Shown: in pieces, positions 1 through 42,224 of the stretch
Numbering within the stretch: the first letter of the stretch is position 1
Layout of the letters: each line of letters starts with the position of its first letter
Translations under genes and position numbers: made by a program
From: a virus
Reading direction: 5' to 3' (one strand)
IMG/VR virus record: IMGVR_UViG_3300000956_000004
Span: 1-42,224 of that record
Length of the DNA stretch: 42,224 nucleotides
Notes under the pieces: model-generated
Seen by the model: the letters and a program-made list of their open reading frames with translations, nothing else
Databases searched by the model: none
Told to the model about the DNA's origin: nothing

Positions 1-50
1 CCTGTAAAACCGAGGTGTTACGGGAGTCAGAGTCAAAAATTCCCCCATTA
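1..50. repeat. Terminal direct repeat, copy 1
   Basis: The first 50 bases are identical to the last 50 bases of the window. An exact repeat of this length at contig ends is most simply an assembly overlap from a circular or circularly permuted molecule, giving a 42,174-bp unit. A true short terminal repeat of a linear genome is the alternative. Confidence 0.95.
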
Positions 51-4660: not shown

Positions 4661-6051
4661 TGCCTGAAGTAAAAATTAGGTATCAGCCACGACCGCATTT
4701 CGTACCCTTCCATAACCGGTCGCACCGTTTTGCCTGCATGGTGGCTCATCGCCGTGCAGGTAAGACCGTGGCTTGTGTCAACGAGGCAGTGACCAGAGCG
4801 CTGTATTCTCGCAAGCACCGGCCACGCTATGCTTATATAGGGCCGCTGTTAAAGCAGGCCAAGAAAATAGCATGGGAATACCTGAAGGAGTACACTCTTG
4901 GTTTCCAAGGTAAAAAGCCGAGTGAAAGCGAACTTACGGTTAAGCTCGCCCACAATAATGCTGAGATCAGTATTTACGGAGCGGACAATCCAGACGCTTT
5001 CCGTGGGCAGTACTTTGATGGGGTCATTCTTGACGAGTATGGGGATATGGCTCCGTCTGTATGGAGTAAAGTCCTACTCCCTACTCTTGCGGACCGACAA
5101 GGGTGGGCGGTATTTATTGGAACACCGAAAGGGAAGAATCACTTCTATAAAATCTTTAGGCGCTCGCAAGGACTTGATCTCCCAGAAAACTCGCATGAAT
5201 ACCTGACTAAGCTTAGTTGGTACAATTTCATCCTGCGGGCCAGCGAGTCTGGCATTCTGTCCGCCGATGAATTAATGTTGCAGAGGTCTGAACAGACCGA
5301 AGACGAGTATCTGCAGGAATACGAGTGTTCATTTGACGCCGCCGTACTGGGAACCTATTATGCATCTATTGTCACCCTTATTGAATCTCGTAACCAGATT
5401 AGAGAAGATGTTGTATACGATCCTGAGTTTCCGGTCAGCGTTGTCTTTGATCTTGGCTACTCAGACTCAACCGCAGCGTGGTTTTGGCAGGAACGCCCTG
5501 ATGGTCTTGCTATTATTGACTACGAAGAAGCTTCGGGAAAAGCTCTTTCGTATTACTTTGATACCCTGCGGCATAAGGGGTATCGCTACAGTAAAATTTG
5601 GCTCCCGCACGATGCTCGTGCTAAGTCGTTGCAGACTGGCAGATCTACCGTCGAACAATTTCTGGCTCAACCGTTTCCAACGTTTGATGAGGGGCAATCT
5701 CGTGTAGTAGATATAGTACCCAATCTCGCATTACAGCACGGAATCGATGCGGCGCGACTAATTTTACCATCTTGTCACTTCAATTCAGTTAAATGCTTCC
5801 CGGGCGTTGAGGCTCTGAGAGCTTACCGTAGATCCTGGGATGAAGAAAAGAGAGTCTTTTCAGAAGCTCCATTCCATGATTGGGCGTCACATGCGAGCGA
5901 CGCTTTTAGGTACTTGGCATTAGTAAGCCGGGAGCGTATAGTACCGTCCAAATCTGCTCCTAAGATTGATCTCAACAAGCCGGTTCAGTATACGCTGGAT
6001 CAGCTGTGGGATATGAACAAAACCTCCCAACGCGCTAAGCTGAGAGTCTAA
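4660..6051 (+). CDS. Terminase large subunit
   Basis: A 463-residue packaging motor ATPase-nuclease. The Walker A variant AHRRAGKT is at residues 29-36, and the Walker B strand GVILDE ends at D125-E126. The C-terminal RNase H-like nuclease shows its first acidic strand VFDLGYSDSTAAWFW at about 262-276 and a late HDWASHASDAFRYLA motif near 407, where the Asp is the usual last metal ligand. The length is normal for the family. It drives DNA into the prohead through the portal encoded just downstream. Very confident. Confidence 0.95.
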   Translation: MPEVKIRYQPRPHFVPFHNRSHRFACMVAHRRAGKTVACVNEAVTRALYSRKHRPRYAYIGPLLKQAKKIAWEYLKEYTLGFQGKKPSESELTVKLAHNNAEISIYGADNPDAFRGQYFDGVILDEYGDMAPSVWSKVLLPTLADRQGWAVFIGTPKGKNHFYKIFRRSQGLDLPENSHEYLTKLSWYNFILRASESGILSADELMLQRSEQTEDEYLQEYECSFDAAVLGTYYASIVTLIESRNQIREDVVYDPEFPVSVVFDLGYSDSTAAWFWQERPDGLAIIDYEEASGKALSYYFDTLRHKGYRYSKIWLPHDARAKSLQTGRSTVEQFLAQPFPTFDEGQSRVVDIVPNLALQHGIDAARLILPSCHFNSVKCFPGVEALRAYRRSWDEEKRVFSEAPFHDWASHASDAFRYLALVSRERIVPSKSAPKIDLNKPVQYTLDQLWDMNKTSQRAKLRV

Positions 6052-8301: not shown

Positions 8302-8563
8302 TATTCAAACACGAGAGCGGAATGGACCAGACGTCCTTCCAGATATCGAACCCTTCGTTTCACCTGTCGACGGAACAATCGTGTCAGGGCGTGCAGCATT
8401 ACGAGAGCACAATCTCCGTAACGGTGTCACCAATGCAGCTGACTATAAAAACGAGTGGGCCGACGCAGCTAAGCGACGGGCTGATTTTTTCACTGGTCAA
8501 GCTCGCGACTCAAATCGGGCGCGAGAAATAGCCCAGGCTTGGGAAAAACATAGGAGAAGGTAA
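8234..8563 (+). CDS. Conserved head-region hypothetical protein
   Basis: A 109-residue basic protein beginning MPLRRKWRWNPDLNQLVEVD, overlapping the portal 3' end by 68 nt with GGAGG 9 nt upstream. The phrases PFVSPVDGTIVSGRAALREH and GVTNAADYKNEW recur in small proteins between portal and scaffold in many podo- and siphoviruses. Role unknown, probably in head assembly. Its stop overlaps the scaffold start. Confidence 0.8.
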   Translation: MPLRRKWRWNPDLNQLVEVDLSDIQTRERNGPDVLPDIEPFVSPVDGTIVSGRAALREHNLRNGVTNAADYKNEWADAAKRRADFFTGQARDSNRAREIAQAWEKHRRR

Positions 8564-9711
8564 TGAGCGTTGAAGAGAATGATCTGAGAAAAGACCTGGA
8601 GGCTGCCTTTGAGCAACACGCCGAAGAACCCGAACACCAAGAAGCGGGGCGATCCTCAGCGGACACCCCGGAGCCCATGGGGAGTCCCCCGGCCGCCGAA
8701 GGAGCGGAAGCCGTTGCCACCGAGGGAGCCGCCGAGGCTAGCGCTGATAGCGGACGAGACGAAAAAGGTCGTTTCAAGGGTAAAGAACCCGGCCCTGGAA
8801 CCGAACCAGCTGCTGCTAAACCTGAGGGCGCTACAAAGACCGACCCTGCAGCTGAAAAGCCGCCGGAAGGCCAGCAACCAGAAGTAATTCCGCCGCCGGC
8901 TGGATTGAAGGCTGCTGCGCGCGAACATTGGGCGAAGGTGCCTCGGCCGGTGCAGGAGGAGATTGTACGCCGCGAGAAGGAAACTGCACAGACACTGCGA
9001 CAGTCTGCACAGGCTCGTCAAATGGCGCAGGAGTTTCAAAGCGTAGTCAACCCATTTCTGCCCATGATTCAGTCTCAGGGCAGCAACCCGATGCAGGCGG
9101 TGAAGAATCTTATGACTACTGCTGCAGGCCTCACGGTCGGCACGCAGGTTCAAAAGGCTCAAATCGTACGTGAAATCATCCAAAACTACGGAATTGATGT
9201 TGCCACGTTGGATCAGGTTCTGTCTGGACAACCTCTTCAACAGCAACAGGGAGCTCCACAGCAGCAGAGTCAGTTAGCTCCGCCGCCTTGGGCGAGCCCT
9301 ATCTTCCAATTCATGAATAGCGTACAGCAGCAGCGACAGCAGCGCGAGCAGCAGATTCTATCTGAGGCAGAAGCTGAAACTGAGGCGTTCGCAGAAAAGA
9401 ATGAATTCTTTGAAGATGTGCGTGAAACGATGGCTGACATTATGGAACTTGGCGCAAAGAGAGGAAAAATCATTTCCATGGAAGATGCTTACAAGCAGGC
9501 AATCGGGTTTGATCCTGAATTAAGCAAGATTGTTAGCCAGCGAGAAGCTGCGAAGAAGTCACAGACACAGCAACAGAACATGCAGCGTACTCGTAACGCA
9601 GCTTCCAGCATCGCTGGCGGGCCCAAGGGAGGCCCAGCTGGTAATTCTGGTGGCGACGACAGCCGCCGCTCCGCCTTGTCTGAGGCATGGGATGCGCAGA
9701 TGGGCAGGTAG
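8563..9711 (+). CDS. Scaffolding-like protein
   Basis: A 382-residue hydrophilic protein directly before the capsid gene. Residues 1-110 are acidic, Ala/Pro/Glu-rich and disordered; 110-330 are helical and Gln-rich (QQQQGAPQQQSQLAPP, QQQRQQREQQ); the C-terminus is basic (RRSALSEAWDAQMGR). This acidic-disordered plus helical layout and gene order fit a scaffolding protein that organises coat subunits and leaves before packaging. It has a strong AGGAGAAGG ribosome site. Sequence identity to a specific family is not claimed. Confidence 0.8.
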   Translation: MSVEENDLRKDLEAAFEQHAEEPEHQEAGRSSADTPEPMGSPPAAEGAEAVATEGAAEASADSGRDEKGRFKGKEPGPGTEPAAAKPEGATKTDPAAEKPPEGQQPEVIPPPAGLKAAAREHWAKVPRPVQEEIVRREKETAQTLRQSAQARQMAQEFQSVVNPFLPMIQSQGSNPMQAVKNLMTTAAGLTVGTQVQKAQIVREIIQNYGIDVATLDQVLSGQPLQQQQGAPQQQSQLAPPPWASPIFQFMNSVQQQRQQREQQILSEAEAETEAFAEKNEFFEDVRETMADIMELGAKRGKIISMEDAYKQAIGFDPELSKIVSQREAAKKSQTQQQNMQRTRNAASSIAGGPKGGPAGNSGGDDSRRSALSEAWDAQMGR

Positions 9712-9734
9712 GGGCTTGCACTGGTAAAAAAGTC

Positions 9735-9805
9735 GTGGTACGGTACGCGCAACCTAGAACGAGTAGGACTTCCACTCTCTTAGGGAGCGCTGTACCGGCC
9801 CCCAC
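9735..9805 (+). ncRNA. Structured RNA element between scaffold and capsid
   Basis: A long nested hairpin can be drawn by eye: GTGG/CCAC, CGGTAC/GTACCG, GCGC/GCGC, CCTA/TAGG and GAGT/ACTC, in order from outside (9735) to a 9-nt apical loop (9765-9773). That is about 22 pairs broken by small internal loops. It is non-coding, has no U tract, and lies 42 nt before a tRNA-like gene. It could be an mRNA-processing or stability element that sets capsid expression, or a packaging RNA. The function is inference. Confidence 0.6.
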
Positions 9806-9846
9806 CCGATGAGAGAACGATCCCAAAGGCAAAGGTTAAGCGATAC

Positions 9847-9919
9847 GCCCTCTTAGTTTAACGGCTAGAACACCGACACCTTGCGTGTGGAGGTTTGGGT
9901 TCAAATCCCATTGAGGGCC
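9847..9919 (+). tRNA. Degenerate tRNA-like gene
   Basis: Seventy-three nt with canonical spacing. The acceptor is GCCCTCT/TGAGGGC (6 of 7 pairs), the D-arm GTTT/GAAC with AACGGCTA loop, and the T-arm TTGGG/CCCAT with TTCAAAT loop (4 of 5 pairs). The anticodon arm is damaged: with standard numbering only 3 of 5 pairs form, position 33 is C instead of U, and the triplet reads CTT. An alternative ACAC/GTGT pairing leaves a 5-nt loop CTTGC. There is no encoded CCA. Decoding identity is uncertain; it may be inactive or a tRNA mimic. It sits 24 nt before the capsid ATG. Confidence 0.6.
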
Positions 9920-9943
9920 CTCTTAATATCTTTGGAGATCTAC

Positions 9944-10915
9944 ATGACTTTCGCAAATCCAAACTATAGCGATATCCTCGCTACGACTATTCAGAGTCGC
10001 ACCCGCAAAATTGCGGACAATGTGACGAAGAACAACGCGCTTCTGGCCCGACTGGAACAGCGCGGCAACATCAAGACTTTTTCTGGCGGTAACGTCATCC
10101 TGCAGGAACTGTCGTTCGCTGAGAACGGCAATGCTTCCTGGTACAGTGGCTATGATCTGCTCCCGGTCGCGGCGCAGGACGTGATCAGCTCTGCAGAATT
10201 CTCCATTAAGCAGGCAGCCGTCCCAGTTGTAATCAGCGGTCTGGAAATGCTCCAGAACGCAGGCAAGGAGCAGATGATAGATCTCATGGACGGACGTCTG
10301 GCTGTTGCAGAGTCTACCATGGCCAATCTCGTGGCGGGTGCACTGTACTCTGACGGTACTGGTTACGGCGGCAAGCAGCTGGTCGGCCTGAACGCAGCGG
10401 TGCCAGTGACCAACACGAACACTTATGGCGGCATCGACGCCAATACGTGGACGTTCTGGCGCAACTACGTGGACAACAATGCGGCTGCGGATTTGACTCC
10501 GGCACTGATTCAGGGTCACCTGAATCTGGCTTGGGCGAATCTGGTCCGCGGCATGGATCGCCCGGATTTGATTGTTATGGACTCTACGACTTGGCAGAAC
10601 TACATGGCCTCGTTGCAAGCGCAACAGCGCTTCACGGATCCCAGCTCTGCAAAGCTTGGCTTCCCCACGATTAAGTTCATGGACGCGGACGTCGTTCTGG
10701 ACGGCGGTATTGGTGGTTTCTGCCCTGCAGGTACCATCTTCCTGCTGAACACGAAGTACGTTCACTACCGTCCACACTCGGCCCGCAACATGGTTCCGCT
10801 GTCGCCTAACAAGCGTTACAGCATCAACCAGGATGCGGAAGTGCAGATTCTGGCCTTCGCTGGTAACCTGACTATGTCTGGTCGCCAGTTCCAGGGCCGT
10901 ATCGACTACAATTAA
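9944..10915 (+). CDS. Major capsid protein
   Basis: A 323-residue HK97-fold-type coat protein. The ATG at 9944 is preceded by GGAG with good spacing; the in-frame extension upstream would run through the tRNA-like gene and is rejected. Recognisable are an N-terminal helix-rich arm, GGNVILQELSF, and a region (LYSDGTGYGGKQLVGLNA) typical of phage capsid proteins. DLIVMDSTTWQNY and NTKYVHYRP mark the axial domain, and the C-terminus has LAFAGNLTMSGRQFQGR. Codon choice is strongly biased to GC-ending, common codons, as expected for the most abundant protein. Confidence 0.92.
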   Translation: MTFANPNYSDILATTIQSRTRKIADNVTKNNALLARLEQRGNIKTFSGGNVILQELSFAENGNASWYSGYDLLPVAAQDVISSAEFSIKQAAVPVVISGLEMLQNAGKEQMIDLMDGRLAVAESTMANLVAGALYSDGTGYGGKQLVGLNAAVPVTNTNTYGGIDANTWTFWRNYVDNNAAADLTPALIQGHLNLAWANLVRGMDRPDLIVMDSTTWQNYMASLQAQQRFTDPSSAKLGFPTIKFMDADVVLDGGIGGFCPAGTIFLLNTKYVHYRPHSARNMVPLSPNKRYSINQDAEVQILAFAGNLTMSGRQFQGRIDYN

Positions 10916-11472: not shown

Positions 11473-12819
11473 ATGGAAAAAGCAATACTCAAAGTAGAAC
11501 TTACTTGCAATACTCCAGACAAAAAATTGGTAGAAAATCTCCGGGCATGTAAGGCCCGGAGTCTGCCGCTCGTTGGATTGACCACTGTCCCCAACGAGCG
11601 GCTTCTGCTGATTTGTGGATCTGGGCCATCGTTATTACAGTATTATAGAGCGGTGGCCGAAATGTGGCCGGCGCATGACACCATGGCCTTGAACGGGGCT
11701 TATAAAGCCCTACAGAGCATAGGAGTCATCCCCAAGTACTATGCTCAGCTAGATGCTCGTCCAGTGAATGTCAATTTTGTCACCGAGCCTGACGAGAACA
11801 CCACATTTCTACTAGCTTCACAGTGCGACCCGCTGATGTACGAAGCTCTACGTGGACAAGACATACAAGTCTTTCATCTCAATACCCCAACCACACACGC
11901 AGTCTTCAAGGGCGCAGACATCTATTTTGGCGGAGGATCCACCATTGGAACCACGGCCATAGGGGTCGCTGCTGCACTCGGGTACAGATCTATTGGAATT
12001 TTGGGATACGACTCTTCTTTCCGAGATGGAAAGTCGCACATTCTACCTCAGGAGCAGAACGCTACAGTGGCAACGCTGCCAGTCTGGGTAGATGATAAGG
12101 AGTATCTCACTACACCTGCGATGGCAAAGCAGGTAGAGGAATTTCGTCCATGGATCAAGGGGTTGGAAGCTGTATTTCCAGATATAGATGTTCGCCTATT
12201 TGGGGAAGGACTTCTGTATGACTACATCATACGTGGTCAAACTATTCAAGCTACCCGTGAAAGTGAAGCTGCCAAGTACACGGAAATGTACAAAGATCCT
12301 AGCTACCGGATGCCGAAGCACAGGGCAGACAAGATTGCAGAAATCCTCTGCGAACGTCCTCGCGGTACTTTACTTGATGTTGGTACTGGGAGAGGAGAAA
12401 CGCTCGACATCGCACGTCTACTGGGCTACAGTGCACGCGGCACAGAAACAGTGGACTATTTGGTTGAAGCCAGAGAGAATGTGGACCGAGGAGTTCTACC
12501 TCAACTTCATTACGCTGACAAGTCCTTTGACACAGTCACCTGTTTTGAGGTTATTGAGCATCTTCTACCTGCAGACGTTATGCCGGCTCTACGAGAGCTT
12601 AGGCGAATCGCCAAAGACCGAGTCATTATCTCAGCCGCTACATGCTCTGATATGCGGGGTGGAGTAGAGTTGCACCCCAGCTACAGACGCGAATGGGAGT
12701 GGGAAGAAACCTTCAAAGCCGCTTGGGGCTGGGAAGCTCAAATAACCAAGCTCGGCAACTTGTCCATCAACGACTATTCACCAGTTTATGAATATTGTCT
12801 GCGTACTACGGGCGAGTAA
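11473..12819 (+). CDS. DUF115-like / methyltransferase fusion
   Basis: A 448-residue, two-domain enzyme. Residues about 45-240 resemble DUF115/MAF-type (6-hydroxymethylpterin diphosphokinase MptE-like) proteins: LLICGSGPSLLQ, LNGAYKALQSIGVIPKYYA, GGGSTIGTTAIGVAAALGY, IGILGYDSSF. Such domains occur in proteins linked to glycan or nonulosonate transfer. Residues about 285-430 are a class I SAM methyltransferase with TLLDVGTGRGET and FDTVTCFEVIEHL. There is little Shine-Dalgarno before the ATG. It overlaps the next glycosyltransferase gene by 32 nt. Probably modifies sugars on virion proteins or host surface. Confidence 0.8.
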   Translation: MEKAILKVELTCNTPDKKLVENLRACKARSLPLVGLTTVPNERLLLICGSGPSLLQYYRAVAEMWPAHDTMALNGAYKALQSIGVIPKYYAQLDARPVNVNFVTEPDENTTFLLASQCDPLMYEALRGQDIQVFHLNTPTTHAVFKGADIYFGGGSTIGTTAIGVAAALGYRSIGILGYDSSFRDGKSHILPQEQNATVATLPVWVDDKEYLTTPAMAKQVEEFRPWIKGLEAVFPDIDVRLFGEGLLYDYIIRGQTIQATRESEAAKYTEMYKDPSYRMPKHRADKIAEILCERPRGTLLDVGTGRGETLDIARLLGYSARGTETVDYLVEARENVDRGVLPQLHYADKSFDTVTCFEVIEHLLPADVMPALRELRRIAKDRVIISAATCSDMRGGVELHPSYRREWEWEETFKAAWGWEAQITKLGNLSINDYSPVYEYCLRTTGE

Positions 12820-25260: not shown

Positions 25261-25533
25261 CTATTTGCCCTTCGCAGGCTTTCCCTTGCCTTGATGCTGT
25301 TCGAGAAGGTTAACTCCGTACCTTGTTTCCGCATGTTTTTGAAGAAAGTGCAAAGCTTTTTCCAAATCTTCGACACCATTCTTCTCCCGCGTTACGTACT
25401 TTGTTATCTGTCCAACCAGATAAGGGCTATTCGCATAGAGATCCCAATGCTGTATATGGCCGCCGCAATGAGGGCAAGTCCCAACAGCTTCCTGGTAATG
25501 CTTCCCACCTACCTGCCTATCGTTCGCAGCCAT
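25261..25533 (-). CDS. DUF3310 protein
   Basis: A 90-residue protein with the DUF3310 signature. It begins NDRQVGGKHYQEA (expected near the N-terminus), carries a small CPHCGGHIQHWD insert, then LVGQITKYVTREKNGVEDLEKALHFLQKH. DUF3310 proteins are common in phage nucleotide-metabolism regions; their biochemical role is not settled. It is encoded beside the thymidylate synthase-like gene. The CxxC insert could bind zinc. Confidence 0.85.
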   Translation of the reverse strand: MAANDRQVGGKHYQEAVGTCPHCGGHIQHWDLYANSPYLVGQITKYVTREKNGVEDLEKALHFLQKHAETRYGVNLLEQHQGKGKPAKGK

Positions 25534-25537
25534 AGTG

Positions 25538-25810
25538 CTACCCCTTTATGGTACCCGGTTCGTTAACCGATTGCCACTTAAAGTGGTTCCGTAGATACAG
25601 CCCCGTCAGTACCAGATTCAGGGGTAGTAGTCCCCACGTCTGGCTGAGAAGAATCCACGCCAGCCAGAGGATCTGGTTGCAAAGAGCTAATATCCACGCC
25701 TTCGGCCATTTGTTGCCTGCTAAGTACACCTGCGTAATAGTCACGCCGCTTATCACCCACGGTAGCATTTCTGCGACTAATCCACTCTTCACAGGCAATT
25801 CTCCAGTCAT
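25538..25810 (-). CDS. Small membrane protein overlapping the TS-like gene
   Basis: A 90-residue protein with three hydrophobic segments (about 14-32, 36-54 and 57-74), and the pattern KAWILALCNQILWLAWILLS then GLLPLNLVLTGLYLRN. Similar short proteins with an N-Q-x-L-W motif are frequent in phages near nucleotide genes. Its first 233 nt lie inside the 3' end of the TS-like gene in another frame, so both frames are coding. The ribosome site is weak. Possibly a small transporter-like or membrane-anchoring protein. Confidence 0.72.
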   Translation of the reverse strand: MTGELPVKSGLVAEMLPWVISGVTITQVYLAGNKWPKAWILALCNQILWLAWILLSQTWGLLPLNLVLTGLYLRNHFKWQSVNEPGTIKG

Positions 25811-26735
25811 CCGCTAAGATTTCGTTCGTGTCGTAAGGCAGACCAGCCTTTCGTCCCCACCAGACTTTGTGCATCGGCGCTGCTACGTTACGCATCCACT
25901 GCGTCCGTATTGGACCAGATGGCTGCTTGGGCAGCCCCACCATATTTAAACAGTCCTCCACAAAGTCTGCATACGTTTCGTTACCGCTCAGTAACGGATA
26001 TGGGCGCACGGTATAGTTCTGTCGTGCGTACACATTTTCTCCCGAATAGGCTCCCCCCATGTAATAGTCGAAATTGGGAACAGATTCGTAAATGTGGAGA
26101 TTCTGAGTAAATACATAGTATTCACCCATAGGCAGACCAGCCGACCGTGCAATCAATTCTTGTAACATTGTCATATGGCAGATATTCGCCCCCAAGGCAC
26201 CCCAGATGAGATCATTACTACGGTTAATGACCGACATCTGCAGTTCACCATCCACCACTCGGAAGAGTAGCTGTGTATTGCAGGGAACATCTACCCCGCT
26301 ATGCCCCAAGTCAGCCTCTGGGTCCCACGTGTTGATTACCAGTCTGCGGTCCAGTGGATTTTCCTTTAGCAGTTTAATCACTCCTTTTATCTGGTCGAAC
26401 CAGAAGTGGTTCCTCCAACGAGCTCCATAGGCAGCGTGTTGGGTGACTCCGTTGTCACTGAAATTCAACATGTTTTTGTTGAAGTGTGCAATCCATTGAA
26501 TATCGTTACTGCCTGCCATCATCCATACGAACTCCATTACGTGGAAGAATGGATTGGCGTCACGTGTGGGATCCGTAATCACCCGTTCGTCAGGCTGCAT
26601 TAGCCTCAGAACTACTGGGCTGAGAATACTGCGAACTGGACCATTGCGCGAGTTTTCCTCCAGCGCAAATGTTCTCATCTTGTATAGTGCTTCACGAAAC
26701 AGGGCTGGGGCATTTCTACCGGTAATAGTGATCAT
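25578..26735 (-). CDS. Thymidylate synthase / dUMP hydroxymethylase-like enzyme
   Basis: A 385-residue TS-family protein. The catalytic Cys is C152 in VPCNTQL; phosphate-binding R172-S173 and D175 lie in NRSNDLIWGALGANI; H214 and Y216 of QNLHIYE match the E. coli H207/Y209 ligand region. The conserved Asn (N184) that reads the uracil base is kept, after a one-residue gap, which argues for dUMP rather than dCMP. The NRSND-x-x-WGA motif is characteristic of phage TS relatives that often hydroxymethylate. The C-terminal roughly 75 residues are disordered and overlap a membrane-protein gene. It starts by ATGA overlap with the HMUdK-like gene. Confidence 0.85.
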   Translation of the reverse strand: MITITGRNAPALFREALYKMRTFALEENSRNGPVRSILSPVVLRLMQPDERVITDPTRDANPFFHVMEFVWMMAGSNDIQWIAHFNKNMLNFSDNGVTQHAAYGARWRNHFWFDQIKGVIKLLKENPLDRRLVINTWDPEADLGHSGVDVPCNTQLLFRVVDGELQMSVINRSNDLIWGALGANICHMTMLQELIARSAGLPMGEYYVFTQNLHIYESVPNFDYYMGGAYSGENVYARQNYTVRPYPLLSGNETYADFVEDCLNMVGLPKQPSGPIRTQWMRNVAAPMHKVWWGRKAGLPYDTNEILADDWRIACEEWISRRNATVGDKRRDYYAGVLSRQQMAEGVDISSLQPDPLAGVDSSQPDVGTTTPESGTDGAVSTEPL

Positions 26736-27604
26736 TTTCCTGGATAACCTCGTTTTGAACGACCAGTGCCACTTCTAACTCGACAGTATTTGTCAAACTC
26801 ACATAGACAATTCTGCAAATCCTGCATGTTGAATTTTCCATCAGTTACGAGCAGAGTTGCTGCCTTCCCGGGAAGCTGGTCACGGACTTCCAAAATTGCA
26901 GTTTCGTACTCGCTTAATTTTATCTTCCTTCCATAATACCATGCCAATCCTCGCAAGCTACCCGGCCCTGGTGCAGACCACATACTCCAATCTTCTGCCG
27001 TGTACAGCGGATGTCCAGGAGTGTTCTTTAAGTCGGCCAGCACTTGGGCGGCCATGAAACTGCCCATACCCTCCAACGTAATATAGTCGTCGTAGCGGCA
27101 CGCAAGCGTACGGGTGCTACCTGTATATGCCCCGCGCCAGCGCGCAGCGCCTAGCAAATCGTACGCAGCCGGGAGCACATTCCTACATAGGTACTGTGCC
27201 TTGCCCATAGGTAGGCCATGCGTAGTTACGACGTATGCATTGCCCCAGACTTTGTGACCCGCCGCTGCGATGTCTTCTATGATGGAAAGAATTTTCTGAG
27301 GATCAGTAACGATTCCCTTGTTGTCCGGGTAAGTGAGTCTCTCCAGTGTTTCAGGCCAGTTTAGGAAACGAGCCACGACCATAGCATACTCATAATCATC
27401 CCAACCGATCTTATCAGGATTCCAATTCCCACGAATCCAGCGTGTAACCCTGTCATCTTCCCTCCGCACATTGCAGAAGTACGTTTCTTGGAATACCCAG
27501 TCGGGGGACCAGGGTTTGGGAAGTCCAGCCTCTTTAGCTTGTCGTATTTTCTCCCTTTCCTGAATCCAGTACGCTAGTAATTCTTTTGGATTTTCCGTAT
27601 TCAT
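26732..27604 (-). CDS. HMUdK helical domain / aGPT-pyrophosphorylase-like protein
   Basis: A 290-residue protein. FCNVRREDDRVTRWIRGNW (about residues 48-66), ARFLNWPETLERL, a GAYTGS segment, YITLEGMGSFMAAQVLADL and the late SAPGPGSLRGLAWYYG fit the helical family described with 5-hmdU DNA kinases and alpha-glutamyl/putrescinyl-thymine pyrophosphorylases (HhH DNA-glycosylase-like fold). No P-loop kinase domain is attached. In hypermodifying phages such proteins act on phosphorylated 5-hmdU in DNA. Here it lies between the TS-like enzyme and a glycosyltransferase, so a role in thymine hypermodification is inferred; exact chemistry unknown. Confidence 0.8.
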   Translation of the reverse strand: MNTENPKELLAYWIQEREKIRQAKEAGLPKPWSPDWVFQETYFCNVRREDDRVTRWIRGNWNPDKIGWDDYEYAMVVARFLNWPETLERLTYPDNKGIVTDPQKILSIIEDIAAAGHKVWGNAYVVTTHGLPMGKAQYLCRNVLPAAYDLLGAARWRGAYTGSTRTLACRYDDYITLEGMGSFMAAQVLADLKNTPGHPLYTAEDWSMWSAPGPGSLRGLAWYYGRKIKLSEYETAILEVRDQLPGKAATLLVTDGKFNMQDLQNCLCEFDKYCRVRSGTGRSKRGYPGK

Positions 27605-28346
27605 ACGCCTTCTTCCACGCTATGTTAACGTCTAATCGTGTTCCACCCCAATTTCCTGATTCCTTCATAACTACACGAACGAACTTTGGATGGAGTTGTT
27701 TAAGATCCTGGGCTGCTTCGTTGTGCTTTTCCAGTGTACGTGATTCGCTACACCCACCCGGCGCGTTACTACCACCTCTCTGATTGTGGACCCAGTTGTT
27801 TAGCACCCGGTTAGCATACCCTAGTTCAAGCAGCTGTAGTGTAGCGTCAAAGTCCTCCATAAACGGTAGTCGGTCAAAGCGAACACCGAACATACGAAAC
27901 TTCATGGGGTCGATGCCATGCACCCGTAGTTGTCGCGATGCCAATTTGAATTCATTGGTATCGTAATTGGCACCTTCACGGGCAGATACCCCCACCATGG
28001 GATGTCCACTTCGAAGTGAAACTAAGATCTCATCCAGCATGTTGTGAACATCTTCATCCGTAGCGGGCCTGAACTTGGTAGGCTCGTCTTTACGACGGAC
28101 AGCGAAATCCAAGTCGTCGTCCAGCATTATCATGTAATCATTCGTATGATCTATCAGCCACTGACGTGTCTTGCCAATGTCCTGTATTTCAGGCGGGAGT
28201 TCAATAAGCGGATAATATGCACGATCGTACTTGTGCTCTTCACGAGCTTGCACTACGAGATGAGTGACAAATTTAGCAGTATGGGGAAGATTGTCCCACG
28301 TTATCTGTCGGTCTGAGCGACCGTACGTAGGAATAAAGATACGCAT
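27534..28346 (-). CDS. TET-associated-type (TAGT) glycosyltransferase
   Basis: A 270-residue GT-A-like protein. MRIFIPTYGRSDRQITWDNL and the strand YMIMLDDDLDFAVRRK (residues 71-86, acidic DDD at 76-78) match the TET/JBP-associated glycosyltransferases of phages, which transfer sugars to hydroxymethylated bases in DNA. MVGVSAREGAN, FRMFGVRFDRLPFMEDFDAT and NWVHNQRGGSNAPGG are further family-like blocks. There is no TET/JBP hydroxylase in the genome, so the acceptor is more likely made at nucleotide level by the TS-like enzyme. The 3' end overlaps the HMUdK-like gene by 71 nt. Confidence 0.82.
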   Translation of the reverse strand: MRIFIPTYGRSDRQITWDNLPHTAKFVTHLVVQAREEHKYDRAYYPLIELPPEIQDIGKTRQWLIDHTNDYMIMLDDDLDFAVRRKDEPTKFRPATDEDVHNMLDEILVSLRSGHPMVGVSAREGANYDTNEFKLASRQLRVHGIDPMKFRMFGVRFDRLPFMEDFDATLQLLELGYANRVLNNWVHNQRGGSNAPGGCSESRTLEKHNEAAQDLKQLHPKFVRVVMKESGNWGGTRLDVNIAWKKAYEYGKSKRITSVLDSGKGENTTS

Positions 28347-29505: not shown

Positions 29506-30942
29506 TTACGTAGTGGCACCATAGTAGGTGGTATCACTAGCCTCCGCAACAATTCTGGCCGTCTTGAGTGCTGCTAAGACGGACTGTTGAGTTCTATCTT
29601 TCATGTTCAAAGCCTTTGCTACGTCTTCATCCTTTGTGTCTTCTGCTACGATGTGATACACAAATACTTTTTCGGCTGATTGTCCTTGTCTATAGACTCG
29701 GGCAATGGCTTGATCGTAATGTTCAAGGTTCCACGGTATTCCAAACCAGACGATATGATGGCAATTTCCCTGCAGGTTGAGCCCATGGCCGGCGGAAGCA
29801 GGGTGAGCAAGCAAATGGGGGATGTCTCCGCGATTAAACCCATCACAAAGCTCATCAAACTTTCCACCCACAACCCCACTAAGATTAGGAACGTTGCCGA
29901 TACGATTAGAAATACGCTCGGCATCATGCCTATATTCGTAGAATATAAGGACGGAATGTCCATTAAGTTCTTCCAGAAGGCTTTCTAGAGCTTCTAGCTT
30001 CTCCTCGTGTAATTCTTTCCAAGTGTCCGTTCCTGTGTATAGCGCTCCATTTGCAATCTGGCGCAATTTTGTCCCAGCGGCCGCCGCATTGAGGGCAATA
30101 ACTTCCTCCCCTGACTCCATTTGAACCAGGAAGTCTTTTTCCAGTTCGTCGTATAACTTTCTGCTGGTCGGGGGTAAGGAAACTGTCAAGTTTTGCGACA
30201 CTAACTCCGGCATTTCCAAGTATTCTTCGGCGCTGAGCTGTAAAATTAGCGGCGAGATCGTTGTAGTTATCCTCTCGAATGCGTCCGGCTGGGGCTTCCA
30301 CTCGTACCCCCCGTAACCGCTCGGCACGAAGAACTCTTGTCTGTAGTGCGTTATGAAGCGCCCCAAGGATCTTCCCAGGTCTAGGATATAAATTTGCCCG
30401 AAGAGGTCTAACAACCCGTTCGGCACGGGGGTACCCGTTAGGATCCAACGCCTTGAAAAAGAAGCTAAGTGCGGCTTCAGCACTTTGAACCTCTGGGTTG
30501 ATGAATTTTTGAACTTCGTCGACTCGTCTACTATTAGGACGTCGAACTCTGGCCTTTTTCGCTTTGCGTCGAATAGCCACGGTATACCCTCTGGATTGAT
30601 TATATAGACATCTACGTCTTTGGCGAGAGCAGCTTCTTTGCTGCTGCCATGCACTATAGTGTACGTAATGTCAGCAAATTCCGCCCATTTCTTTATTTCA
30701 TCAGGCCATACCTTGCGCATGGGCCGCAGCGGGGCAATGATCAGTGCTTTGCCGACAAGACCCTTCTGCTTTAGGATCTTAAATGCCATCAAACAAGTGG
30801 ATGTCTTTCCCAGTCCAGGGTCTAGGAATAGTCCAACGGAGCCCTGCTGCATCATAAGTTGCAGCGCCCTCAATTGGTACGGCTGCGGGGTCCAGGTGAT
30901 TGTGGAGGATCGCTTTGGCGTGTTCGTAGTTATCGCATCCAT
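29506..30942 (-). CDS. SNF2-type DEAD/DEAH helicase
   Basis: A 478-residue superfamily 2 helicase with SNF2-like features: Q-motif region TPQPYQLRALQLMMQQG, Walker A LDPGLGKTS, DEST motif II in VLIVDEST, LTGTPVPNG (III), and the C-terminal lobe with PASAGHGLNLQG and ARVYRQGQ (VI). I start it at the ATG at 30942, which has AGAGG 8 nt upstream; a longer reading from 31026 adds a non-conserved 28 residues inside the nuclease gene. Probably helps replication or recombination. It overlaps the VRR-NUC gene by 164 nt. Confidence 0.9.
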   Translation of the reverse strand: MDAITTNTPKRSSTITWTPQPYQLRALQLMMQQGSVGLFLDPGLGKTSTCLMAFKILKQKGLVGKALIIAPLRPMRKVWPDEIKKWAEFADITYTIVHGSSKEAALAKDVDVYIINPEGIPWLFDAKRKRPEFDVLIVDESTKFKNSSTQRFKVLKPHLASFSRRWILTGTPVPNGLLDLFGQIYILDLGRSLGRFITHYRQEFFVPSGYGGYEWKPQPDAFERITTTISPLILQLSAEEYLEMPELVSQNLTVSLPPTSRKLYDELEKDFLVQMESGEEVIALNAAAAGTKLRQIANGALYTGTDTWKELHEEKLEALESLLEELNGHSVLIFYEYRHDAERISNRIGNVPNLSGVVGGKFDELCDGFNRGDIPHLLAHPASAGHGLNLQGNCHHIVWFGIPWNLEHYDQAIARVYRQGQSAEKVFVYHIVAEDTKDEDVAKALNMKDRTQQSVLAALKTARIVAEASDTTYYGATT

Positions 30943-31177
30943 AAACCAAGCCTCTACGTTGTACGATTTGTGTTGCCCAGTACCGCTGTAGCAGCGTGGG
31001 GTCTTTACCCGCGCGCTTAAATTCAATCCAAAGGTATCCGCCCCAGGGAGCTTGGAAAAGCTGATCCGGCTTACCCTTATTCCCCAGGGCGTTCATTTTC
31101 CAATGTAGGTAGTTCAAGCCCACAGCGTAAGTGACAGCCTTATCCTCAAGAAGTTTCTCAAGAGGTGTGTTCACCAT
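30779..31177 (-). CDS. VRR-NUC nuclease
   Basis: A 132-residue PD-(D/E)xK nuclease of the VRR-NUC type: NKGKPDQLFQAPWGGYLWIE (G-x-P-D then a W-x-E-F-K strand at about 34-55), and DPTLLQRYWATQIVQRRGL. Such stand-alone phage enzymes are thought to cut branched DNA. The last roughly 40 residues overlap the helicase start in another frame. It lies between a Cas4-like nuclease and the helicase, giving a recombination/repair cluster. Confidence 0.85.
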   Translation of the reverse strand: MVNTPLEKLLEDKAVTYAVGLNYLHWKMNALGNKGKPDQLFQAPWGGYLWIEFKRAGKDPTLLQRYWATQIVQRRGLVYGCDNYEHAKAILHNHLDPAAVPIEGAATYDAAGLRWTIPRPWTGKDIHLFDGI

Positions 31178-31887: not shown

Positions 31888-32102
31888 GGCAGTTTCTCAA
31901 TCAGGGCTTCCATTTGCTTGATTCGCATATGTTCAACCCACGATAGTCTGAGATGATCTGCATTTAGAACATCCGCTGCTGCTTTGAGATCATCAAAGAT
32001 CTTAAGCAACTCATCCGGGGATGTTCTCATCACAATCTGTAGTCGTCGATTCCAGGACTCTGCCTGTTCCGCCTCGTAAGCAGCCTTTTTACCGTCGCTC
32101 AT
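31884..32102 (-). CDS. Small helical hypothetical protein
   Basis: A 72-residue charged helical protein. Its start overlaps the polymerase stop (TAATG), and its stop overlaps the Cas4-like start. Likely a small partner of replication or recombination enzymes, by position only. Confidence 0.72.
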   Translation of the reverse strand: MSDGKKAAYEAEQAESWNRRLQIVMRTSPDELLKIFDDLKAAADVLNADHLRLSWVEHMRIKQMEALIEKLP

Positions 32103-33925
32103 TAGTCACACTCCTCTATCTCTTCCCAGTTGGGGCCCATGAAACCTTCGCTCTTAAACGGAACATCGAAACGATCCTTGTCCATGGCTTCCTTCAGAAC
32201 TACCATATGCTTAGGAGCTTCTTCCTTGGGCGCGCTGATGTTTATTTCGTCGTGGACAGTGGCAAGGAAAGTTGAATCCCAGGTTCGGTTGTCGTCCCAA
32301 TCAATGATGGACTGCTTGGTTTGGTCGGCTGCACTTCCCTGGACGAGATAATTGAGCAGCTTATATTCAAAGGATCTAAGACGTCCTTCAATAATTTTTG
32401 AAGACTCCACAAAGTATTCACGGCCTCCCCATGTACGTATAGCTTCACCTCTACGACCTGCATTTTGCACATCCTTAATCAGTTGTTTAACATCGGGCAT
32501 TGCATTCAGCACGGCGTTACGTAATGCCTGCGCTACTTCATATTCTTCAATCCCTGTTTGACGCATAACGCCAGGGACACCAGCTCCGTATATGAGGGAA
32601 AATCCGGTGATTTTGATGTACTTTCTGGCGTAATCGACTCCGGTAATTTCAAGCGCCCGCTCACGATTTGCTTGGTGGGGATCGAAATTTGGATCAAGAA
32701 TGTATGATCGGAGAAGTTGTCCATCTTCAAAATGAGCGAGGATACGTACCTCCTGGCTTGAGAAGTCTCTCTTGAGCCAGACGTGTCCCATTTCGGGGAG
32801 GAGATATACCCGCATAAGTGGGAGGGCCAGAAATCCTTCCGGAATAACCAGATCGAATTCGGTGGGTACATTCTGGAAATTTGGGTGACTACTCGATAGC
32901 CTTCCCGTTTTAGTCCCTGCGCTATCCCGCTCAATAGTACGGACTTGGTTCCAAGAAGTGTGTAGTCTACCGTCTTCATAGCTTAACTCCAGCCACGGCC
33001 CAATGAACGTAGAGAGACAGGTGTTCAGGGCTCCACGATACTTAACAAGTCCTTCAACTCGCAGATCGTTGATCTTAAGCGATTTCTTACTTGTGGATCT
33101 ACGACCGGTTTTAGTAAGTGCCCACTCGGTGACATACCCGTTTCGGTCAAGTGCTTCCGCAAGATCTCCGCGCTTGCCGAAATCGAGTCCAGGTGTCTTG
33201 AGCAGGCTTCGCAGCTCGTCATCGGCGCGGTCCAGTTGCCCTGTATACACATGTTTATCTTCCTCCAATTTCCCCCGATTTACCCGAATTCCCTTCCTGC
33301 TACTTTCATAGAGGATGGGCATGAGGCGACGTTCTCTATCGTAGGCAGGTTGCATTCCACGCGAAACCACCTTCGGGTAAAGATGCTCGAACAGCTTGAA
33401 AGTGCGAACGACGTCACCAATAGCATACTTACCAACGAGATCGCCAGGAGCCTCAGAGATATACGCCCCCCATTCGGCTTCATTCGCGTACGGTACGTTC
33501 TGAAGAATCCAGTGTTTGAGTTCGGTTTGCTCATCTGGGGGCATCCCTAGATATCTTTCAGCAGAAGGCTTGAGAGACAGAGTGTCAGCGTAAGGGTCAT
33601 CAAGAAATACAAGATACTGAGTATCATGCATCCTCGCCCAATCTTTGTATAGCCAAGTCGTGCCGAGTGCACCATCAGTAACAGAGAGATCAAAAGGTGC
33701 ATTGTGAAATAGCAGAGGGCGATTAGAGCAAATAACCTTCCTGGCATACTTCAGTCCCTCCTCTCTGGTGATATTATTGCCCCAGGGGTGACCCCAGGCC
33801 AGATATCTGGGTTCGCTTCCCTGAACCCATACCGCCAGCCCAACCGGGTCCGGCGGCCGAGATATGACGTTGCCGTCAATCTTCTTCGTTTCGTAATCCA
33901 GCGTTATGATGGACTGTAGGTCCAT
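32102..33925 (-). CDS. polA: Family A DNA polymerase with 3'-5' exonuclease
   Basis: A 607-residue T7/Pol I-type polymerase. Exonuclease acids are D10 and E12 (TLDYETKK) with later FHNAPFDLSV and YAIGDVVRTFK. Polymerase motif A is KRDFSSQEVRILAHF (catalytic D387), motif B RKYIKITGFSLIYGAG, motif C VHDE (D559). FQNVP and QGSAADQTKQSIIDW are also present. No 5' nuclease domain is present. Length is short but complete for phage Pol A. It lies in the operon with SSB-like and nuclease genes and is the replicative polymerase. Confidence 0.95.
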   Translation of the reverse strand: MDLQSIITLDYETKKIDGNVISRPPDPVGLAVWVQGSEPRYLAWGHPWGNNITREEGLKYARKVICSNRPLLFHNAPFDLSVTDGALGTTWLYKDWARMHDTQYLVFLDDPYADTLSLKPSAERYLGMPPDEQTELKHWILQNVPYANEAEWGAYISEAPGDLVGKYAIGDVVRTFKLFEHLYPKVVSRGMQPAYDRERRLMPILYESSRKGIRVNRGKLEEDKHVYTGQLDRADDELRSLLKTPGLDFGKRGDLAEALDRNGYVTEWALTKTGRRSTSKKSLKINDLRVEGLVKYRGALNTCLSTFIGPWLELSYEDGRLHTSWNQVRTIERDSAGTKTGRLSSSHPNFQNVPTEFDLVIPEGFLALPLMRVYLLPEMGHVWLKRDFSSQEVRILAHFEDGQLLRSYILDPNFDPHQANRERALEITGVDYARKYIKITGFSLIYGAGVPGVMRQTGIEEYEVAQALRNAVLNAMPDVKQLIKDVQNAGRRGEAIRTWGGREYFVESSKIIEGRLRSFEYKLLNYLVQGSAADQTKQSIIDWDDNRTWDSTFLATVHDEINISAPKEEAPKHMVVLKEAMDKDRFDVPFKSEGFMGPNWEEIEECD

Positions 33926-35971: not shown

Positions 35972-36006
35972 TTATAAGCAGCCAGGATTAACCTGTGAGG
36001 ATTGAT

Positions 36007-37956
36007 ATGTTAGACGACCAGTTGTTTATTGATGCATGGTCGCAAGCGGGTGTGGTTGATATTCCGTCGTTTTCCTCTCGTTTTCTAGGCGATAATACTC
36101 CGATTTACAGATCCTTCATGGAGCAGGACTTGGGCAAGTCTGGCCTCAAGCCGCTGCACATGAATGGATACGTCACGCCTATAATTCCAAAAGATTGCGA
36201 CGCCGCTTATCACATTCCGTATTGCGATATCTCTGGCAAGCTTGTCTACATGCACCGTACAAGGGTGCGAAGACCTGAATACAGCAAACTGGGAAAGTAT
36301 ACACAACCCAACTATGAAGAGCTAGGCCGCCATGGTCTACCTTCACACATTCCCTACATTAACCCTGTCTTACTAAAATTAGATTCGGAGGTGATGATCT
36401 GTGCAGAAGGAGAAAAGAAAACTACAGCCATCCTCAAATATCTTGGAATACCCGCCTTTGGCATCGGTGGGTGTCAGATGTGGCGAAATCCGGATGGTAG
36501 TGGTAGCCTCCATCCATGGATTAAACGGCTTCTCGAAGCCCGAAGCTGCAAAAAAGTCCTTATCGTTCCAGATGGGGATCTACTTAGATATGATATCTGC
36601 AATGCTTATGGCACGTTTGCACACGCGCTCAGGGAAACGGGCTTCGCGGTTGAAATGCTCAACCCTCCCGACAAAATTGATGATCTACTCGTCAATTGGG
36701 AATCCCCAAGTGACAGCTTCGGAAATCTGCCGCGAATTGCTCTCGATGACCTCGTCCAGAGTCATTCTTTCCTTGCCCGACGGTACAATCTTGCTTTCCG
36801 GCAAAGTGATAAAGGGGCAATCACAGTCCACCAAACCAGTAGTAACGTCATGAAACTGTTGGAAGAGCATAATGCCTTCCCTAAGATATGGAGGAATCTC
36901 GATACGAATAGAGTCCACGTTGGCGATGAGCAAGCTACTCCAGACCTTACTGAAATGCAAATCGCTAATTACTTTCAACATAATCTTGGCTTCGAAAAGA
37001 TATCACACAGGCATGTCTACCCATGTATTCAAGCACTGGCGAAGCAGAATCAGAAGAGTCCTTTTCTGGAGTATATCAAAGGATTGAAATGGGATTCCGT
37101 GCCGCGGATCAACAACTGGCTGACGACATACTGGGGTGTGAAGGATTCGGAGTTTGCGAGAGAAGTGGCGAGCCGGTGGTTGATCTCAGCGTGTGCCCGG
37201 CTGGACAAACCGGGCACGAAGGTAGATTGGATGATGATAGTTGTTGGTCCTCAGGGTACTGGGAAAACGTCTATGCCCTCGGTGATCTTCAATGGCAACT
37301 CGCTAACGCTGTACGGAGAATCCAACGACAAGGACCTTCACATGAAGATTCACAGCGCCTTAGTGATTGGCTTCGACGAGTTAGACTCCTTCGGCAAGAA
37401 GGAGAGCAGCTTCTTAAAGGCAATGATCACTACTAGCCAGGATCATTTCCGTCCTCCCTACGGATCGTCAGTCGAAGTGTTTGATCGTCGATGCACTCTA
37501 TATGGATGTGGTAATCGTCATGAATTCCTACAAAGCGATCCGTCCGGCTATCGCCGATATGCAATTGTTGAGGTAGATAGGATATTAGATTTCGCAGGGC
37601 TGCAAACAATTCGGGATCAACTATGGGCTGAGGCATGGGCAAGATACTCCATCGGTGAAGAATTCGTACAGGTACGGTCGGCTAGTACGGAAGCTGAAAA
37701 GTACGTGGTTCCTTCTGAGTTGGAAGGCAAGGTACATCAGTTCCTGGATGCACTTCGAAATTCCACTGCGTATCATAAGAATGGGCTGATGTACACACAG
37801 TACTCATCGATTGTGGATTCAATCGGCCATCGTCCTAATCCAAGGGAGCTGGCCGCCACGTTGCGTCAGCTGGGTGGTGAACAGCGCAAGCGGGACAGGG
37901 GACCCCAAGGAGGGTCCCCCCGAGATTGGTGGGTATTCCCTATTTCTCCAGAGTAG
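36007..37956 (+). CDS. TOPRIM-like/VirE-type primase-helicase
   Basis: A 649-residue replication enzyme. The N-terminal part (about 90-250) has a DUF3854/TOPRIM-like core: VMICAEGEKKTTAILKYLGI (E), GGCQMW, VLIVPDGDLL (DxD). The C-terminal part is a virulence-associated-E/D5-type ATPase: GPQGTGKTS at about 414-422, VIGFDELDSFGKKESSFLKA at about 454-473, and PPYGSSVEVFDRRCTLYGCG (sensor 1). The ATG at 36007 has GAGG 6 nt upstream; the GTG at 35995 is an alternative. It primes and unwinds for the Pol A replisome. The divergent leader lies just upstream. Confidence 0.9.
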   Translation: MLDDQLFIDAWSQAGVVDIPSFSSRFLGDNTPIYRSFMEQDLGKSGLKPLHMNGYVTPIIPKDCDAAYHIPYCDISGKLVYMHRTRVRRPEYSKLGKYTQPNYEELGRHGLPSHIPYINPVLLKLDSEVMICAEGEKKTTAILKYLGIPAFGIGGCQMWRNPDGSGSLHPWIKRLLEARSCKKVLIVPDGDLLRYDICNAYGTFAHALRETGFAVEMLNPPDKIDDLLVNWESPSDSFGNLPRIALDDLVQSHSFLARRYNLAFRQSDKGAITVHQTSSNVMKLLEEHNAFPKIWRNLDTNRVHVGDEQATPDLTEMQIANYFQHNLGFEKISHRHVYPCIQALAKQNQKSPFLEYIKGLKWDSVPRINNWLTTYWGVKDSEFAREVASRWLISACARLDKPGTKVDWMMIVVGPQGTGKTSMPSVIFNGNSLTLYGESNDKDLHMKIHSALVIGFDELDSFGKKESSFLKAMITTSQDHFRPPYGSSVEVFDRRCTLYGCGNRHEFLQSDPSGYRRYAIVEVDRILDFAGLQTIRDQLWAEAWARYSIGEEFVQVRSASTEAEKYVVPSELEGKVHQFLDALRNSTAYHKNGLMYTQYSSIVDSIGHRPNPRELAATLRQLGGEQRKRDRGPQGGSPRDWWVFPISPE

Positions 37957-42174: not shown

Positions 42175-42224
42175 CCTGTAAAACCGAGGTGTTACGGGAG
42201 TCAGAGTCAAAAATTCCCCCATTA
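42175..42224. repeat. Terminal direct repeat, copy 2
   Basis: Exact copy of bases 1-50; see copy 1. Supports a circular or permuted unit genome of 42,174 bp. Confidence 0.95.

What the first reader, a model, noticed from the sequence alone, without database searches (positions are those of the whole stretch)
25578..28346. Candidate thymine hypermodification pathway without TET/JBP
Three overlapping minus-strand genes encode a TS-family enzyme with all catalytic landmarks (C152, R172, D175, N184, H214, Y216), a protein of the HMUdK-helical/aGPT-pyrophosphorylase type, and a TAGT-type glycosyltransferase. TAGTs were described beside TET/JBP hydroxylases, yet none is seen here; the retained uracil-reading Asn points to dUMP. 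A route of dUMP to 5-hydroxymethyl-dUMP, incorporation, then glycosylation or pyrophosphorylase-type substitution is therefore plausible. No separate 5-hmdU DNA kinase is recognised. The combination may be a variant or new branch of base hypermodification.
Basis: partly seen in the sequence, partly recalled or inferred. Interest (0 to 1): 0.88.

Follow-up and report, generated by a model that had tools for sequence, protein, structure and literature searches.

The report
Phage cassette for sugar-coated thymine
This phage carries a conserved gene set (uracil-nucleotide hydroxymethylase, a DNA-glycosylase-fold helper and a sugar transferase), shared with many other phages, that probably replaces some thymine in its DNA with a sugar-decorated base without the usual kinase or TET oxidase; it would be a DNA-protection route that, as far as I could find, nobody has yet assayed.

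Summary
Three overlapping minus-strand genes (25578-28346) encode a TAGT-family GT-A glycosyltransferase (PF20691), a PF18723 'HMUDK_hel' protein (HEL) and a thymidylate-synthase-family enzyme closest to that of the 5-hmdU phage M6. All 114 distinct homologues of the last keep the dUMP-reading Asn and lack the two tryptophans of true thymidylate synthases. The record has a 50-bp terminal repeat, so it is probably complete; it has no recognisable 5-hmdU DNA kinase, amino acid:DNA transferase, TET/JBP or T4-type glucosyltransferase. The gene order GT>HEL>TS recurs in dozens of divergent phages (47 of 48 distinct cassettes in one scan). In relatives a kinase or another enzyme occupies the GT slot; the HEL tree needs at least 9 GT/kinase switches. 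HEL's predicted fold resembles amino acid:DNA transferases and, remotely, HhH DNA glycosylases; HEL is fused to the kinase in a Bacillus phage. I conclude that HEL plus dUMP hydroxymethylase is a constant 5-hmdU core with exchangeable tailoring enzymes. Here the predicted product is glycosylated 5-hydroxymethyluracil, base-J-like but TET-independent. Pyrophosphorylase-type substitution is not supported. Activity is untested; the cultured Brevibacterium phage LuckyBarnes has a related set, so LC-MS is possible now.

The parts
27534..28346 (-). TAGT-family GT-A glycosyltransferase (270 aa), predicted to put a sugar on 5-hmdU in DNA
   Evidence: PF20691 6.3e-21; phrog_842; AF2 pLDDT 95.9; Foldseek best hits TarP/TarS-type GT-A, E 8.5e-6, prob 1.00; D76-D77-D78 and D165 invariant in 75 sequences
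26732..27604 (-). HEL: PF18723 'HMUDK_hel' protein (290 aa), predicted base-flipping DNA protein of the ADDT / DNA-glycosylase-like fold that serves the tailoring enzyme
   Evidence: PF18723 1.5e-35; AF2 pLDDT 91.9; Foldseek viral: HEL family, SP10 kinase fusion, then amino acid:DNA transferases; Foldseek PDB: 22 of the top 50 are HhH DNA glycosylases, all with E >= 0.5
25578..26735 (-). TS-family enzyme, predicted dUMP 5-hydroxymethylase (385 aa)
   Evidence: PF00303 8e-25; phrog_5131 2.8e-97; 39% identical to M6 gp58; N184 and C152 invariant 114/114, no Trp at the positions aligned with TS W80/W83
25261..25533 (-). DUF3310-like small protein, recurrent fourth gene downstream of TS; possible nucleotide-kinase-related role
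   Evidence: PF11753 20.5 bits (below the 24-bit cut-off) and phrog_236 'nucleotide kinase' 4.8e-10; T7 gp1.7 carries the same domain; found in 92 distinct loci, in 90 downstream of TS within 1.5 kb
1..50 (.). Left copy of the 50-bp direct terminal repeat (record closes into a circle)
42175..42224 (.). Right copy of the 50-bp direct terminal repeat
29506..31026 (-). Context: SNF2/DEAD-type helicase of the same early-gene block
   Evidence: PF00176 5.3e-25
32102..33925 (-). Context: family A DNA polymerase
   Evidence: PF00476 1.5e-47

Best explanation
The cassette makes glycosylated 5-hydroxymethyluracil in the phage's own DNA. (1) The TS-family enzyme turns dUMP into 5-hydroxymethyl-dUMP (inferred from its residues and its closeness to the M6 enzyme). 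(2) The nucleotide is raised to the triphosphate by host or phage kinases, possibly helped by the DUF3310 protein next door (weak inference), and polymerised in place of part of the thymidine. (3) After replication the TAGT-family enzyme moves a sugar from a nucleotide-sugar donor onto the 5-CH2OH (inferred from its GT-A fold and metal-binding DDD motif; the sugar is unknown). (4) HEL, a protein of DNA-glycosylase-like fold related to amino acid:DNA transferases, binds and presents the modified base to whichever tailoring enzyme the phage carries (inferred; about even odds on its own). Shown: families, residues, gene order, recurrence, missing kinase and transferase matches, repeated exchange of the enzyme in the GT slot, and one natural kinase-HEL fusion. 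The modification would protect the DNA from restriction and similar host attack (inferred).
For: Family assignments. TS closest to the M6 enzyme; Asn at the base-reading position 114/114, where Asn means dUMP and Asp means dCMP (PMC8670742). GT>HEL>TS adjacent on one strand in 47 of 48 dereplicated HEL-scan loci that have all three. In a scan that selected on the GT alone, 76 of 80 loci also carry HEL. Of 41 GT-bearing whole records searched, none matches the kinase family. Tailoring slot: kinase in 9 of 68 dereplicated HEL loci, a GT4-like protein in L014 and an unnamed family in L055/L065/L074; the HEL tree needs at least 9 GT/kinase changes, e.g. L044 (kinase) sister to L058 (GT) at SH-aLRT 98. 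Kinase-HEL fusion in Bacillus phage SBSphiC. GT-A fold and DDD motif. HEL fold.
Against: No chemistry of any such phage DNA is known to me, so sugar, linkage and even glycosylation are untested. HEL's residues are as strongly conserved as an enzyme's, so 'helper' may understate it; its function is not established in the papers I could read. Manatee Spring phage MW202897 has GT and an Asn-type TS but no HEL, so HEL is not strictly required. PF20691 enzymes studied so far act on glucosyl-hydroxymethylcytosine (PMC13216743). Family searches can miss divergent kinases: the PF18748 search missed the L076 kinase-like gene that my session profile found.
Confidence: 0.7

Rival explanations
1. Kinase/transferase-type hypermodification: 5-hmdU is phosphorylated and the phosphate replaced by an amino acid or amine as in phages M6 and ViI, with the HEL protein as the 'pyrophosphorylase' and unrecognised partners elsewhere.
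For: HEL is the PF18723 family found beside the kinase in M6 and fused to it in SBSphiC; HEL's fold resembles amino acid:DNA transferases; annotators call it aGPT-Pplase1.
Against: No PF18748 or PF18724 match in this record at E<=10, no small P-loop protein, no kinase match in 41 GT-bearing records. In M6 the transferase PF18724 is a separate gene.
Confidence: 0.1
2. The GT acts on hydroxymethylcytosine, as T6 TAGT does, and the TS-like enzyme is a dCMP hydroxymethylase.
For: phrog_842 is named after beta-glucosyl-HMC-alpha-glucosyltransferase; T-even phages carry TAGT beside a dCMP hydroxymethylase. MilA (CMP hydroxymethylase) is the best PDB hit of the TS-like protein.
Against: Asn, not Asp, at the base-reading position in 114/114 (rule from PMC8670742). 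Nearest characterised-phage enzyme is that of the 5-hmdU phage M6. No first-step AGT/BGT.
Confidence: 0.08
3. Ordinary dTMP synthesis plus a glycosyltransferase for phage structural proteins or host surface, placed together by chance.
For: Foldseek hits of the GT are wall teichoic acid GTs; phages do carry surface GTs.
Against: 47 of 48 adjacent in order; lost TS tryptophans; the GT slot is swapped for the 5-hmdU DNA kinase in sister lineages.
Confidence: 0.07
4. HEL is itself a catalytically active DNA glycosylase or base-exchange enzyme rather than a helper, e.g. for quality control or for attacking other DNA.
For: HhH-GPD-like motif (GMGS-F...D) and fold hits to DNA glycosylases; clean PF18723 homologues sit alone beside a ThsB-TIR/SLATT operon (Haloferax, checked; the same genes seen by eye in two more haloarchaea) and beside GmrSD in a Myxococcota genome, with no TS or GT nearby.
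Against: PDB fold hits to DNA glycosylases are not significant (E >= 0.5) and profile comparison with Nth, MutY and AlkA found nothing. The position of the lyase Lys is Phe; a glycosylase acting on its own genome would be harmful.
Confidence: 0.12

Closest known systems
Pseudomonas phage M6 / YuA-type thymidine hypermodification (5-NedU)
   Same: Same TS-family dUMP hydroxymethylase (39%), same HEL family (29%), both with a family A DNA polymerase nearby
   Different: M6 has the PF18748 kinase, PF18724 amino acid:DNA transferase, radical SAM, PLP and Nmad5 genes; this phage has a TAGT in the slot instead, and no kinase or ADDT is recognised
T2/T6 TAGT (beta-glucosyl-HMC-alpha-glucosyltransferase, PF20691)
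   Same: Same GT family and predicted GT-A fold (PMC13216743)
   Different: The T-even enzyme adds a second glucose to glucosyl-hydroxymethylcytosine (PMC13216743); here there is no first GT and the base is predicted to be uracil-derived
Base J of kinetoplastids (beta-D-glucosyl-hydroxymethyluracil)
   Same: Predicted product would be of the same type: a sugar on 5-hydroxymethyluracil
   Different: Base J is made on DNA thymine by JBP (TET family) oxidation (own knowledge); here hmU would be made as a nucleotide by a TS-family enzyme
Phage 5-methylcytosine/TET-dependent glycosyltransferase clusters (Pyle et al. 2024, cited in PMC13216743; details from memory)
   Same: Phage GTs repurposed to decorate a hydroxymethyl pyrimidine in DNA, with varied GTs
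   Different: Those act on cytosine made by methyltransferase + TET; this is TS-based, predicted thymine-type, and carries HEL
Brevibacterium phage LuckyBarnes gene set (cultured phage, uncharacterised)
   Same: TS-TAGT-TAGT-HEL, Asn-type TS, no PF18748 kinase match
   Different: Two TAGTs, gene order TS first, distant sequences (30% identity in GT)

Membership tests
dUMP hydroxymethylase (TS superfamily) | Thymidylate-synthase fold family with catalytic Cys, Arg, Asp | tested here: met
   PF00303 8e-25; C152, R172, D175 invariant 114/114
dUMP hydroxymethylase (TS superfamily) | Asn at E. coli TS position 177 (dUMP, not dCMP) | tested here: met
   N184 114/114; rule from PMC8670742
dUMP hydroxymethylase (TS superfamily) | Not a dTMP synthase: hydride-transfer tryptophans (E. 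coli W80/W83) lost | tested here: met
   No Trp at these columns in 114 sequences; meaning of the Trp residues from own knowledge
dUMP hydroxymethylase (TS superfamily) | Makes 5-hydroxymethyl-dUMP | not testable with these tools
   Needs an enzyme assay
HMUDK_hel (PF18723) | Match above curated cut-off over the full domain | tested here: met
   123.4 bits against a 25-bit cut-off, model positions 6-276 of 281
Amino acid:DNA transferase ADDT (PF18724) | Sequence match to PF18724 | tested here: not met
   No match at E<=10 in the record; only a fold resemblance of HEL to ADDT
5-hmdU DNA kinase | P-loop kinase domain PF18748 | tested here: not met
TAGT glycosyltransferase (PF20691) | Match above curated cut-off | tested here: met
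   75.7 bits against 27.5
TAGT glycosyltransferase (PF20691) | GT-A fold with DXD-type metal motif | tested here: met
   Model pLDDT 95.9; Foldseek GT-A hits; DDD76-78 invariant
TAGT glycosyltransferase (PF20691) | Association with TET/JBP dioxygenase (origin of the name) | tested here: inconclusive
   No PF12851 in 50 records, but the control did not ring; none in the scanned window ORFs
M6/ViI amino-acid thymidine hypermodification pathway | Kinase plus amino acid:DNA transferase present | tested here: not met
   positive control M6
Glycosylated 5-hmdU DNA | Modified nucleoside in virion DNA | not testable with these tools
   Needs LC-MS

The most novel reading that the evidence does not exclude
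PF18723 (HEL) is a general 5-hmdU-presenting module, of the same fold as amino acid:DNA transferases, that serves interchangeable tailoring enzymes (kinase, GT-A, perhaps GT-B). The GT version is a widespread, so far uncharacterised TET-independent phage route to base-J-like DNA, and lone HEL homologues in archaea and bacteria read or attack such bases in defence.
Probability: 0.35. Interest if true: 0.87.

Novelty: new variant of a known kind. Interest (0 to 1): 0.74.

Why it matters
If true, phages in dozens of lineages make sugar-decorated thymine by a short route (hydroxymethylase, HEL, glycosyltransferase) that the known kinase/amino-acid and TET/JBP routes do not cover. It would explain some of the solitary TAGT genes left open in the literature (288 of 753 phage genomes, PMC13216743), point to a function for the misleadingly named 'kinase helical domain', and supply new enzymes for writing glycosylated bases. 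It can be tested now in a cultured phage.

Tried and rejected
Megablast of 12 kb against phages: no match. PDB sequence searches with HEL and GT (single sequence and profile): nothing meaningful. PDB profile search for the unnamed family that replaces the GT in L055/L065/L074 and also occurs in L082: nothing, and no PHROG for the two members scanned, so calling it GT-B-like rests only on a motif seen by eye. HEL versus E. coli Nth, MutY, AlkA by hhalign: no similarity. Vi01_062c beside the ViI kinase was expected to be HEL but is not PF18723. HEL fused to GT or TS: none in 159 loci. HD 5'-deoxynucleotidase companion: in 45 of 116 dereplicated loci but not in the window, so not part of the core. 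Lee 2018, Lee 2021/22, Wen 2024 and Hutinet 2021 are not held in the library, so statements about M6/ViI biochemistry beyond gene content rest on memory. Text search for glycosylated hydroxymethyluracil in phages: none. Rejected: aGPT-type pyrophosphorylase substitution, plain dTMP synthase, hmC route (see rivals).
Full report
WHAT IS THERE. The three genes are real and at the stated coordinates. TS (25578-26735), HEL (26732-27604) and GT (27534-28346) overlap, TS and HEL by ATGA. Pfam gives PF00303, PF18723 (HMUDK_hel) and PF20691 (TAGT), all above the curated cut-offs; PHROGs agree. The record is a 42,224-bp IMG/VR virus with a 50-bp direct terminal repeat, so absences carry weight.

POSITIVE CONTROL. 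In phage M6, whose DNA has 5-NedU (PMC6449724), the same Pfam scan finds each pathway part: gp51 PF18724 amino acid:DNA transferase, gp54 PF18748 kinase, gp55 PF18723, gp58 TS family. In this window PF18748 and PF18724 have no match even at E<=10, and no small P-loop protein was found. The T4 beta- and alpha-glucosyltransferase families give no match either. TET/JBP gave no match, but the control of that search did not ring; Pfam scans of the main window ORFs show none.

THE HYDROXYMETHYLASE. The enzyme is 39% identical to M6 gp58 over 330 residues. In 114 dereplicated sequences (window and M6 included) the catalytic Cys152 and the base-reading Asn184 never vary. Asn at this position means dUMP and Asp means dCMP (PMC8670742). 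The columns aligned with TS W80/W83 never hold Trp, which from general knowledge of TS fits water rather than hydride capture, i.e. hydroxymethylation.

THE CASSETTE IS CONSERVED AND WIDESPREAD. Scans of IMG/VR by HEL profile (80 best of at least 588) and by GT profile gave loci in which GT, HEL and TS recur together. Of 68 HEL loci distinct at 95%, 48 carry GT+TS, 47 of them in the order GT>HEL>TS on one strand; 9 carry the kinase, 7 have TS only and 4 have none. These are the nearest relatives, so the proportions do not describe the whole family. In the GT scan, which did not select on HEL, 76 of 80 loci carry HEL. Across 41 GT-bearing whole records none matches the kinase family. Only one locus, L146, has both GT and kinase. 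A DUF3310 protein follows TS within 1.5 kb in 90 loci; T7 gp1.7, annotated as a nucleotide kinase, carries the same domain. DUF3310 is common in phages, so this link may not be specific.

THE TAILORING SLOT IS SWAPPED. In loci without TAGT the gene before HEL is the kinase (e.g. L030, L044), a GT4-like protein with weak, below-cut-off matches (L014), or a member of an unnamed family (L055, L065, L074). On a HEL tree of 110 rows, GT and kinase labels need at least 9 changes; L044 (kinase) and L058 (GT) are sisters at SH-aLRT 98 (quick tree, no bootstrap). So related HEL and TS genes have repeatedly been paired with different tailoring enzymes. In Bacillus phage SBSphiC one polypeptide carries PF18748 (51-209) and PF18723 (328-613), a Rosetta-stone link between HEL and a tailoring enzyme.

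WHAT HEL MAY BE. The AF2 model is confident (pLDDT 91.9). Among viral models it matches its own family, the SP10 kinase fusion and then amino acid:DNA transferases (E 3.8e-3, prob 1.00), followed by non-significant hits to DNA-3-methyladenine glycosylase and endonuclease III. In the PDB, 22 of the top 50 hits are HhH DNA glycosylases from several organisms, but none is significant (best E 0.5; best TM 0.54 by target, MjOgg), and sequence profiles do not confirm it. The hairpin GMGS lies between two helices (167-174, 182-193) and is followed by Asp205, as in HhH-GPD enzymes, with Phe where lyases have Lys (own reading). HEL's most conserved residues (R17, N45, R48, D51, F183, D191, G213, G215, C268, E269, K272) are the same in GT-linked, kinase-linked and solitary cellular homologues. 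A base-flipping DNA protein with one shared job is the simplest reading, but catalysis is not excluded. Solitary homologues lie beside a ThsB-like TIR and SLATT operon in Haloferax (the same genes seen by eye in two more haloarchaea) and beside GmrSD in a Myxococcota genome, which suggests a link to modified DNA or defence.

THE GLYCOSYLTRANSFERASE. Model pLDDT 95.9; Foldseek finds TarP/TarS GT-A enzymes at E 8.5e-6, in line with the GT-A/GT2 placement of T6 TAGT (PMC13216743). D76-D78 and D165 never vary in 75 sequences.

MECHANISM AND NOVELTY. The best reading is dUMP to hmdUMP, incorporation, then glycosylation of 5-hmdU, with HEL presenting the base. Gene content, residues, order and swapping are shown; every catalytic step and the sugar are inferred. 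TAGT, HEL and TS are each known families; TAGTs without AGT/BGT are noted as unexplained (288 of 753 phage genomes, PMC13216743). I found no description of this three-gene route in the library, but key papers (Lee 2018, 2021/22; Pyle 2024) could not be read, so novelty is not certain. Hence 'new variant of a known kind'. A cultured phage, LuckyBarnes, has TS-TAGT-TAGT-HEL with an Asn-type TS and no PF18748 kinase match, so the claim is directly testable.

Noticed in passing
L185 (Haloferax), L197, L202: HEL at 7884-8957, 7965-8975, 3793-4797: HEL homologues without TS or GT lie divergently beside a ThsB-like TIR protein, a DUF4231/SLATT protein and two unknown genes; Pfam checked in L185 only. 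A possible archaeal defence module.
   Followed up: partly
L194 (Myxococcota) 7998-8879 and 9190-10887: HEL homologue next to a GmrSD type IV restriction enzyme (a family that cuts modified DNA).
   Followed up: partly
L055 4594-5499, L065 8838-9974, L074 104-1054, L082 11603-12532: Unnamed protein family (28-33% identity to L065) in HEL/TS loci without TAGT (in L082 downstream of HEL), with an 'ANRFYExLSAG' motif that looks GT-B-like; no Pfam family above cut-off, no PDB relative, and no PHROG for the two members scanned.
   Followed up: partly
L055 8525-9394; L082 10819-11598; L065 7548-8543: Sugar-kinase-like (PfkB, by eye HldE-like), weak sulfotransferase-like and radical SAM/SPASM genes near HEL, hinting at other decorations of the base.
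   Followed up: no
L216:4954-6909 (Bacillus phage SBSphiC): Single 652-aa ORF fusing the 5-hmdU DNA kinase domain to HEL.
   Followed up: yes
window 11473-12819 +: MptE-like (DUF115) domain fused to a methyltransferase inside the structural-gene region; possibly linked to glycosylation of virion proteins.
   Followed up: no
L001 (MW202897, Manatee Spring): Related 40-kb phage with TAGT + Asn-type TS + HD-domain gene but no HEL, an exception to the cassette.
   Followed up: partly
L129, L150, L156, L157 and L162: Two neighbouring TAGT-family genes near HEL, suggesting a disaccharide or two different sugars.
   Followed up: no
window 35995-37956 +: VapE-like domain P-loop protein in the replication region.
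   Followed up: no
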